In this document: positions 30,964-32,786 of the stretch, in pieces | How positions within the stretch are numbered: the first letter of the stretch is position 1 | Layout of the letters: each line of letters starts with the position of its first letter | NCBI GenBank assembly: GCA_031265955.1 | Contig: JAISBY010000010.1 | Coordinates: forward strand, 248,001 to 312,000 | Direction: 5' to 3' | Source: Mycoplasmataceae bacterium | Lineage (GTDB): Bacteria > Bacillota_I > Bacilli_A > Mycoplasmatales > Mycoplasmoidaceae | Length of the DNA: 64,000 bases | Notes under the pieces: generated by a model | Seen by the model: the letters and a program-made list of their open reading frames with translations, nothing else | The model's database searches: none | What the model was told of the DNA's origin: nothing | Made by a program: the position numbers and the translations under genes

Positions 30964-30969
30964 TATAAT
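30964..30969 (+). promoter_or_regulatory. -10 box of CA-leader locus 2
   Basis: TATAAT eleven bases before the leader ATG (30981). The region 5' of it is T-rich and has no standard -35; the box position matches the other two CA leaders. Confidence 0.6.
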
Positions 30970-30980
30970 ACTCTCCGTTT

Positions 30981-31046
30981 ATGAAAAACAAAATCCTGTT
31001 GGTTACACACACACACACACACACACACACACACAGCGCAAGCTAG
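30981..31046 (+). CDS. CA-repeat leader peptide, locus 2 (early-stop phase)
   Basis: 21-aa ORF MKNKILLV, then five Thr-His pairs, then SAS and a TAG (31044-31046). The first residues are hydrophobic. The TAG lies 25 nt before the hairpin stem. With one more CA the frame stays open through the hairpin to TAA 31126-31128; with one fewer it stops at the TAA at the hairpin base (31067-31069). Probably translated from a leaderless mRNA; no ribosome site. Confidence 0.55.
   Translation: MKNKILLVTHTHTHTHTHSAS
31006..31035 (+). repeat. (CA)15 microsatellite inside leader ORF 2
   Basis: Thirty bases of pure CA, as long as that at 12.2 kb, coding Thr-His pairs in the leader frame. A gain or loss of one unit changes the leader's stop codon. 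Confidence 0.97.
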
Positions 31047-31070
31047 TTTTTCTCAACCCAATAATTTAAC

Positions 31071-31102
31071 ACCAGTATCAAACACTGATGCTGGTATTTT
31101 TT
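31071..31102 (+). terminator. terminator-like hairpin in leader 2
   Basis: Ten-base stem ACCAGTATCA (31071-31080) with TGATGCTGGT (31086-31095), one G-U pair, loop AACAC, then six T (31097-31102). Located before the ribosome site of the BspA-like gene; attenuator geometry. Confidence 0.75.
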
Positions 31103-31145
31103 ATTGCCTCGTCAACAAAAGTTATTAATTATTGAAGGGAATAAT

Positions 31146-32786
31146 ATGAAAGATAAAAGGAAACAAAACAATAATTGAAAACCACACAAACATCGAATTG
31201 CTTTAATTACCACATTAGGTTGTTTAGTGACGACTGGTATTGGTGTCGGCGTAGGGTATGCGATTTGACATAGTAAGAATTCAAACCCAGATCCAATTCC
31301 ACCAGATCCTGTGGTAGTTCATACGTATACCTTAGAGCGAACCGCAAAAGTACTAGATTGAAATCGTGATCCCACAGAATCACTTTATACAGAATTTACG
31401 ATGAAAGTGGATGGCATAGCAATTGATAATCCAACTAATGTGATGCTTAGTATTGATACCGGTAGTGATTATGTAACTATTGACCAGCCTACTAATAGAA
31501 TAACTTACACAGGCAAAGATGTTGGTGGTGTTAAAACACCTGTTTACAACACTCTCCCAATTGATGTAACTGCAACATATGATGGACATACTGCTTCCAC
31601 CTATATTGTATTAGATGATTTTGAGCCAACAAATGTCTTGGAACCAAATGATCCAGCGTGAGAAAATTTATTTAAGACATCATCAGGTGTATTAGATTCT
31701 ACCGATATTGTTAATTCAGAAACTAATAATTGACTACAAGAACAAAACCAATACAATACGATTGATTTGTCATCTTTTTTATCTATCGGCACTAATGCTT
31801 TTTCTGGTTGTCCGAGTTTAACAACTGGGGGCAAAGATATTACAATTAGTTTTGAAAATTTTAATGCTACTGTCGCTACTTCTATTAGCGATTACGCTTT
31901 CCTCAATTGTGAGAGAGTAAAAGACATTATTCTTCCAAAAGAAACCACTGGTATAAATGTTTTTGACATTGATGACTATGCCTTTTCAGGATGTATTGAT
32001 TTGCAAAATGTTTCATTACCTACTGATAGTTCAACTGCCAATATTTCCATCGGTGTTAGTGCCTTCGAAAATTGTACAAATCTTAAGAATTTCGACTTAC
32101 CCAAAGGTAATGTTTCCATTGGCGTTGCTGGCTTTCGTAATTGTACGAAATTAGAAACACTTTCCTTGCCAATTATTTCTACTAATAGTGTAATTGCTTC
32201 TATAGGTGACGGGGCTTTTGATGGTTGTGCAAATTTATCGGTGGAAGGAATCCAAGCATTAGGTAACGACGGAGGTTCCAACCCTCATATTGATACAAAT
32301 AATCTTGTTTATGTAGGAAATGGAACTGGCACTTCAATTGTTGGTGCTGCGATTGTTGCGGCAGTAGGAAAACCGTGAATTTATGGAGCGGGTTTAATAT
32401 CAGGTAATCTTGCCAATAAACTTAGTGGACATTTTACGTCAGAAAACCCCATTAGTTTTGATGGCTTCTATAATTGTGCGAGTTTAACCGACATTGATTT
32501 GCGCGATGCTATTGCTTCCGACAGCTCCTCTGGTCTCTTCTATTATTGTGTAAATTTAGAAAACGTTTTTTTGCCAACAAATTTGGTTTCTATTGGACCT
32601 AGCGCCTTCCAACGCTGTACCAAATTAACGACTTTATCATGGTACCACGCTGGTAATCCTTCCTCCATTGGCAATTCTGCTTTCTTTGGTTGTGATAGTT
32701 TAGCCACTATTTATTATGCAAGTGGTGGTTCTCCATGATATCCCGAAATTGCAAATGCTCCTAGTTGTAATTACTTTCAAATATAG
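31146..32786 (+). CDS. BspA-like leucine-rich-repeat surface protein, membrane anchored
   Basis: 546 aa. A basic N-terminus (~20 aa) leads to one hydrophobic segment, TTLGCLVTTGIGVGVGYAIWH (~24-44), which lacks a good lipobox and probably serves as signal anchor. An Ig-like domain follows (HTYTLERTAKVLDWNR ... IVLDDFEPTNVL, ~60-170), then BspA-type repeats (SIGTNAFSGCPSL, SIGVSAFENCTNL, SIGVAGFRNCTKL, SIGDGAFDGCANL). The N-terminal part is nearly the same as in the genes at 44.9 and 49.3 kb. Ribosome site AAGGGA. TGA codes Trp. Its leader is in the early-stop phase, so I predict low expression in this clone. Confidence 0.83.

What the first reader, a model, noticed from the sequence alone, without database searches (positions are those of the whole stretch)
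30964..31146. Second copy of the CA leader, in early-stop phase
Seen: TATAAT (30964-30969), ATG 11 bases later, MKNKILLV plus (Thr-His)5 from (CA)15, SAS, TAG at 31044-31046, hairpin 31071-31095 with U6, then a BspA-like gene (31146). One repeat more would read through the hairpin to TAA 31126-31128; one fewer would end at TAA 31067-31069 at the hairpin base. The same three fates as locus 1 despite different flanks, which is unlikely by chance. If read-through means ON, this gene is OFF here.
Basis: partly seen in the sequence, partly recalled or inferred. Interest (0 to 1): 0.9.

Follow-up and report, generated by a model that had tools for sequence, protein, structure and literature searches.

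The report
CA-repeat leader switch for surface genes
An uncultured mycoplasma relative, apparently from a termite gut, appears to turn at least fifteen surface-protein genes on and off by gaining or losing CA units in a tiny gene upstream, which decides whether a ribosome reaches and blocks a transcription stop signal; this trick had been described only for pili of one streptococcus.

Summary
Window 30964-31146 holds TATAAT, a near-leaderless ATG, a (CA)15 leader ORF ending early at TAG 31044-31046, and an intrinsic terminator (31071-31095, z = -5.9) before a BspA-like LRR_5 gene. The three stop positions by repeat phase are as stated. This is one of 15 such loci in the genome; 15 of its 18 long CA runs sit in this architecture. 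Leader sequences fall into at least three unrelated groups, and the class A hairpin covaries. The same layout, with different sequence, precedes genes in two other termite-gut Mycoplasmataceae genomes, including a 50%-identical homologue. As assembled, 12 of 15 loci are in the early-stop phase (6 expected, P about 0.001).

Best explanation: repeat-driven phase variation acting through translation-controlled transcription attenuation. Early stop leaves the terminator free (OFF). A stop at the hairpin base, or read-through, blocks it (ON). Streptococcus gallolyticus Pil1 (Danne 2014) works exactly this way, so the mechanism is known. New here are the Mollicute setting, the dinucleotide repeat, the leaderless leader ORF and the genome-wide scale. 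Nothing was measured experimentally.

The parts
30964..30969 (+). -10 box TATAAT of the leader promoter (locus 2)
   Evidence: sequence; in M. gallisepticum the TSS lies 5-7 nt after TATAAT (PMC4245973), so the ATG 11 nt after it is near-leaderless
30981..31046 (+). leader ORF MKNKILLV(TH)5SAS*, stop TAG 31044-31046; early-stop phase (predicted OFF)
31005..31035 (+). CA dinucleotide repeat, 15.5 units, the slippage switch
   Evidence: Tandem Repeats Finder
31067..31069 (+). TAA reached with one repeat fewer; at hairpin base (predicted ON)
31071..31095 (+). intrinsic terminator hairpin, followed by T6 at 31097-31102
   Evidence: z -5.93; covariation in 7 paralogues
31126..31128 (+). TAA reached with one repeat more, after reading through the terminator (predicted ON)
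31146..32786 (+). BspA-like LRR_5 surface protein gene (code 4, 546 aa), controlled gene
   Evidence: Pfam LRR_5 2e-37
12165..12298 (+). locus 1: TATAAT 12165-12170, ATG 12181, (CA)15 12202-12231, hairpin 12267-12298; read-through phase as assembled (predicted ON)
12345..13865 (+). locus 1 LRR_5 lipoprotein gene
55496..55638 (+). locus 3 (not in this finding): TATAAT 55496-55501, ATG 55509, (CA)21 55536-55577, TAG 55584-55586, hairpin 55608-55638; early-stop phase (predicted OFF)
55682..57463 (+). locus 3 LRR_5/He_PIG surface protein gene

Best explanation
The element is a phase-variable transcription attenuator. A near-leaderless ORF starts a few bases after a TATAAT promoter and runs into a (CA)n tract that gains or loses units by slipped-strand mispairing. 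Each change of one unit shifts the reading frame. In one phase (the present one at 31 kb) the ribosome stops about 21-24 nt before an intrinsic terminator, the hairpin forms, and the surface-protein gene is OFF. In the other phases the ribosome terminates on the hairpin base or translates through it, the hairpin cannot form, RNA polymerase continues, and the LRR_5 gene is translated from its own ribosome-binding site (ON). The genome uses the same device at about 15 surface-protein loci, so cells of one clone would display different mixtures. Shown from sequence: the anatomy, the stop geometry, hairpin conservation, recurrence, and the phase bias. Inferred: leader translation, slippage, termination and the ON/OFF assignment.
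For: (a) 15 loci with TATAAT-ATG-(CA)n-terminator-gene in one genome, in at least three sequence-unrelated leader classes; every locus has at least one hairpin-free and one hairpin-covering phase. (b) The early stop lies 21 nt before the hairpin in most loci whatever the leader class. (c) Class A hairpin: 96.7% of cells paired, 10 double-changed cells against 4.3 in shuffles, covariation 0.359 against at most 0.044 when slid. (d) 12 of 15 loci are in a hairpin-free phase as assembled against 6.0 expected (P 0.0014); 18 of 21 with the two other genomes (P 1e-4); repeat length modulo 3 should not matter if the tract were untranslated. (e) Independent recurrence: G022/G060 (Roe453_bin32), where five intact leaders have two early stops and one frame running through the hairpin, and G024/G061 (Pcl387_bin181); the latter's gene is 50% identical to the G000 L041 gene although the leader sequence between repeat and hairpin is different. 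(f) Direct experimental precedent: S. gallolyticus Pil1 with the same three stop positions (PMC3894217). (g) Mollicute biology permits it: TATAAT promoters, no Rho in M. gallisepticum, intrinsic terminators (PMC4245973), and ribosome-RNAP expressomes seen in M. pneumoniae cells (PMC8116511).
Against: No expression, termination or translation data. No second strain of the species was available to show repeat-length polymorphism. The three-fate geometry alone arises often in shuffled AT-rich sequence. Paralogues are not fully independent and the phase-bias test was devised after seeing the data. Assembled repeat counts in a metagenome bin are majority values and could carry assembly error. No leader with this sequence was found in the other 35 genomes of the genus.
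Confidence: 0.8

Rival explanations
1. Translational coupling instead of attenuation: in the read-through phase the leader ribosome terminates next to the gene start and re-initiates there, and the hairpin is a translational barrier or simply insulates.
For: In G022/G060 the read-through frame ends 2 nt before the gene ATG (stop +97, ATG +100).
Against: In G000 the read-through stop ranges from well before to well past the gene start (L036 +81 vs ATG +112; L038 +117 vs +101; L044 +171 vs +114). L042 and L043 have no read-through phase, genes have their own purine-rich RBS, and the conserved element is a hairpin followed by a T run, i.e. a terminator.
Confidence: 0.1
2. The CA tract acts as RNA or DNA length/structure (protein binding site, spacing) and is not read by ribosomes; ON/OFF depends on repeat number, not on frame (vlhA-like).
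For: Repeat-number control of spacing is the usual mycoplasma pattern (GAA in vlhA, homopolymer or TA tracts in vlp/vmc promoters; own knowledge). Promoter homopolymer tracts also occur at some of these loci (T in G022, G8/C9 in L042/L043).
Against: The tract lies downstream of the start site and inside an ORF. Repeat numbers vary from 8 to 26 units, yet the frame relative to the stops is biased, and stop codons are placed about 21 nt from the hairpin in unrelated leaders.
Confidence: 0.06
3. The repeats are neutral microsatellites carried along by gene duplication, and the hairpins are ordinary terminators of upstream genes or small RNAs.
For: CA runs also sit in two non-leader sites in repeated elements, one beside an IS66 transposase, and several loci are paralogues.
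Against: 15 of 18 runs are in the same position in sequence-unrelated leaders. Homologous genes in another species keep promoter, ATG, CA run and terminator with diverged sequence. The hairpin is separated from upstream genes by a promoter.
Confidence: 0.04

Closest known systems
Streptococcus gallolyticus pil1/pil3 phase-variable leader-peptide attenuator (Danne et al. 2014, PMC3894217)
   Same: Repeat with a unit not divisible by 3 inside a leader ORF; early stop well upstream of an intrinsic terminator is low; stop at the hairpin base (21 repeats) or within/after it (23) is high; controls a surface structure; majority of cells OFF.
   Different: Pentanucleotide GCAGA with an RBS-led leader at two pilus operons in a Firmicute. 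Here: CA dinucleotide, near-leaderless ATG, Mollicute with TGA=W, at least 15 loci in one genome, several unrelated leader families, LRR_5/BspA-like and other surface proteins.
trp-type ribosome-mediated attenuators
   Same: Ribosome position on a leader ORF decides whether an intrinsic terminator forms.
   Different: No stalling codons, sensing or antiterminator hairpin found; the variable is a heritable frame change, not amino acid supply.
Mycoplasma promoter-repeat phase variation (vlhA GAA, vlp poly-A, vmc TA; from own knowledge)
   Same: Slippage-driven ON/OFF of paralogous surface lipoproteins; homopolymer promoter tracts co-occur at some loci here.
   Different: Those alter promoter spacing or activator binding upstream of transcription; here the repeat is transcribed and (inferred) translated.
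Classical in-frame coding-repeat phase variation (also in this genome: L034 acyltransferase with ATG AGA GAT (AC)n)
   Same: Dinucleotide repeat near a leaderless ATG shifts frame.
   Different: There the repeat is in the gene itself; here in a separate leader, leaving the signal peptide of the surface protein unchanged.

Membership tests
Pil1-type phase-variable leader attenuator | Short ORF downstream of a promoter and upstream of the gene, containing a tandem repeat whose unit is not a multiple of 3 | tested here: met
Pil1-type phase-variable leader attenuator | Intrinsic terminator between leader repeat and gene | tested here: met
Pil1-type phase-variable leader attenuator | Repeat phases place the leader stop either well upstream, or at/through the terminator | tested here: met
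   31046 / 31069 / 31128 against hairpin 31071-31095; all 15 loci
Pil1-type phase-variable leader attenuator | Repeat number varies within a clone | not testable with these tools
   no reads or second strain; paralogues in this genome differ from 11.5 to 26 units
Pil1-type phase-variable leader attenuator | Downstream transcription depends on leader translation | not testable with these tools
   needs reporter or RNA-seq
Pil1-type phase-variable leader attenuator | RBS-led leader start as in pil1 (a trait of pil1, which I do not take as defining) | tested here: not met
   ATG only 11 nt after TATAAT at this locus, so near-leaderless; hence 'variant'
trp-type attenuator | Run of regulatory codons and alternative antiterminator hairpin | tested here: not met
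   leader codes for His-Thr only because of the repeat; no antiterminator in the class A consensus fold
vlhA/vlp/vmc promoter-repeat switch | Repeat upstream of the transcription start | tested here: not met
   CA tract starts 36 nt after the TATAAT box; start site itself inferred from the box

The most novel reading that the evidence does not exclude
A genome-wide regulon of a dozen or more independently switching leader attenuators sets a mostly-OFF surface repertoire. It is a dedicated leaderless-mRNA switch that arose or spread repeatedly in termite-gut Mycoplasmataceae, possibly with a second layer in which the RNA 5' end around the leader AUG pairs with the segment just past the terminator.
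Probability: 0.3. Interest if true: 0.75.

Novelty: new variant of a known kind. Interest (0 to 1): 0.62.

Why it matters
Repeat-phase attenuation was described for two pilus operons of one streptococcus, and my literature searches found no other case. Here the same logic appears at 15 loci of one Mollicute genome and in two relatives with unrelated leader sequence, which suggests repeated adoption and a general way to vary secreted proteins without touching their signal peptides. It also offers a clean test of transcription-translation coupling on leaderless mRNA, and predicts the surface state of an uncultured symbiont directly from DNA.

Tried and rejected
Covariance models of the class A and B leaders found no sequence relatives in 35 congeneric genomes, except one weak class B hit in G017 not accepted as a leader. 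The exact (CA)9 pattern across 85k genomes gave 18 stretches; the non-Mollicute ones (Calescibacterium, Patescibacteria, Ignavibacteria and others) were not followed because no terminator geometry was evident on reading. IMG/VR had none. The three-fates geometry as a significance argument was tested by shuffling and dropped. G022/G060 loci L102 and L103 were left out of the statistics because no intact terminator and gene follow them. G030 L062 has promoter, leader and CA run before a lipoprotein gene but only a weak hairpin (-2.3 kcal/mol), so it was not counted. The long-range 5'-to-post-terminator pairing is statistically present in the set (P about 0.002 within classes) but absent at the 31-kb locus, so it was not made part of the explanation.

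Full report
WHAT IS THERE. The described element is present base for base. TATAAT is at 30964-30969, ATG at 30981, the AC/CA run of 15.5 units at 31005-31035, and TAG at 31044-31046. A 10-bp hairpin at 31071-31095 is followed by T6 and folds at -13.9 kcal/mol, z -5.93 against shuffles. It is the only terminator-like site in the 350-bp region scanned. The gene begins at 31146. The organism reads TGA as Trp; under code 4 the gene is 546 aa with LRR_5 (BspA-type) repeats at 2e-37. Adding one CA moves the stop to 31126-31128, past the terminator; removing one moves it to 31067-31069, at the hairpin base.

ORIGIN. The window is C3:248001-312000 of a 0.98-Mb, 11-contig genome. Its genus mates in the public collection are Mycoplasmataceae metagenome bins; two of them, Roe453_bin32 and Pcl387_bin181, correspond to G022/G060 and G024/G061. 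That the bin names mark termite-gut samples is my own reading of them, not a tool result.

IT IS ONE OF FIFTEEN. The genome has 18 CA runs of at least 8 units. Fifteen lie in the architecture TATAAT, ATG, CA run, hairpin with T run, gene. One is inside the 5' end of an acyltransferase-3 gene (L034). Two lie in 'TATTCACCG' elements, one of them beside an IS66 transposase. The leaders form class A (seven LRR_5 genes, three of them in this window), class B (L037, L038, L040, L042, L043 and, more loosely, L099) and class C (L031, L041). The class B and C products tested have no Pfam match. Class A, B and C leaders are not alignable to one another by eye. Model searches and inspection found repeat-less leaders before three more LRR_5 genes. 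L082 has a leader ending at the hairpin base, L085 has a short ATG frame or a GTG frame ending at the hairpin base, and L083 has an early stop.

HAIRPIN. On seven class A leaders the hairpin has 96.7% standard pairs and ten double-changed cells (4.3 in shuffles). Its covariation score is 0.359, against at most 0.044 when the partner is slid by 1-3 columns. It is selected as a structure.

STOP GEOMETRY. For each of 21 leaders in three genomes I computed the stop in three consecutive repeat phases. Every leader has at least one phase that stops 17-35 nt before the hairpin and at least one that reaches or crosses it. The early stop is exactly 21 nt before the hairpin in most leaders, although the sequences differ. 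The assembled phase is informative, however: 12 of 15 G000 loci are hairpin-free against 6.0 expected (P 0.0014), and 18 of 21 overall (P 1e-4). This test was devised after seeing the table and paralogues are not fully independent, so I treat it as strong support, not proof. By this reading the 31-kb and 55-kb genes are OFF, and the 12-kb gene, L032 and L043 are ON.

CONSERVATION IN RELATIVES. In G022/G060 five intact leaders have a T tract, TATAAT, ATG, CA run, two early stops (17 and 21 nt before the hairpin) and one frame that runs through the hairpin to a stop at or before the gene start. In G024/G061 one leader has the same plan. Its gene is 50% identical over 408 aligned positions to the G000 gene behind L041, while the leader sequence between the repeat and the hairpin differs. 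Neither covariance model found sequence relatives elsewhere in the genus apart from one weak hit, so the plan is kept and the sequence is not. One weaker homologue in G027 has a poly-C promoter tract and no CA leader, so the device is gained or lost over short times.

MECHANISM. In Streptococcus gallolyticus pil1, 22 GCAGA repeats end the leader 39-49 bp before a terminator (low expression). 21 repeats end it 4 bp before, and 23 end it within or downstream of it (both high). Removing the terminator raises, and removing the leader start lowers, expression (PMC3894217). The 31-kb locus has the same three positions: 24 nt before, 1 nt before, and past the terminator. I therefore assign early stop = OFF and both others = ON. 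That hairpin-base stops count as ON is further suggested by L042 and L043, which have no read-through phase but keep repeat and terminator. Mollicute biology fits. M. gallisepticum promoters are TATAAT with the start 5-7 nt downstream, so leader ATGs about 7-11 nt after TATAAT, as at most of these loci, are leaderless or nearly so. Termination there is Rho-independent (PMC4245973). Ribosome-RNAP expressomes are seen in M. pneumoniae (PMC8116511). A separate leader has an obvious advantage over a coding repeat: the signal peptide of the surface protein is untouched.

WHAT IS NOT SHOWN. Leader translation, slippage, premature termination and differential expression are inferences. The bin provides one assembled repeat count per locus.

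NOVELTY. Literature searches combining phase variation with leader peptides, attenuation and repeats returned only the S. gallolyticus system. The library lacks most subscription journals, so absence is not proof. I file this as a new variant of a known kind. What is new is the clade, the dinucleotide, the leaderless start and the scale.

SIDE OBSERVATION. In many loci the RNA 5' end around the leader ATG is complementary to the stretch just after the terminator. Own-pair duplex energies exceed within-class permutations with P about 0.002; the strongest is L082 (-18 kcal/mol). The 31-kb locus lacks it (-4.3). Its role is unknown; it could close the leader start once a transcript has passed the terminator, or be an inverted repeat at DNA level.

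Noticed in passing
   Followed up: yes
L082, L036, L037, L038, L040, L043, L085 (G000): Complementarity between the leader 5' end (around ATG) and the stretch just after the terminator, beyond permutation controls; function unknown.
   Followed up: partly
L034 (G000:C3:221749-221775): Acyltransferase-3 gene with a leaderless ATGAGAGATA(CA)n start, out of frame as assembled: ordinary coding-repeat phase variation next to the leader type.
   Followed up: partly
L042, L043 (G000); L100-L106 (G022/G060); L140 (G027): Homopolymer tracts near the -10 box (G8, C9, about T15-17) at loci that also have CA leaders, or at a homologue without one: possible second, promoter-level switch.
   Followed up: no
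L035 (+ strand), L039 (- strand), G021 loci L052-L057, L059: (CA)n embedded in a repeated 'TATTCACCG...(CA)n' element, beside an IS66 transposase in L039; probably ends of a mobile element.
   Followed up: partly
L108, L109 (G081, G082): Leaderless ORF of about 512 aa with tandem (CA)n then (GA)n inside the coding start, only one phase open: coding phase variation in another mycoplasma family.
   Followed up: no
L070, L073 (Calescibacterium and an uncultured bacterium): TATAAT-ATG-(CA)14-17 upstream of similar exported-protein genes in another phylum; no terminator recognised by eye.
   Followed up: no
window 8507-12022 (- strand): 1171-aa pyruvate:ferredoxin/flavodoxin oxidoreductase in a Mollicute; similar to what is reported for the Trichomonas symbiont Ca. 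Mycoplasma girerdii (own recollection).
   Followed up: no
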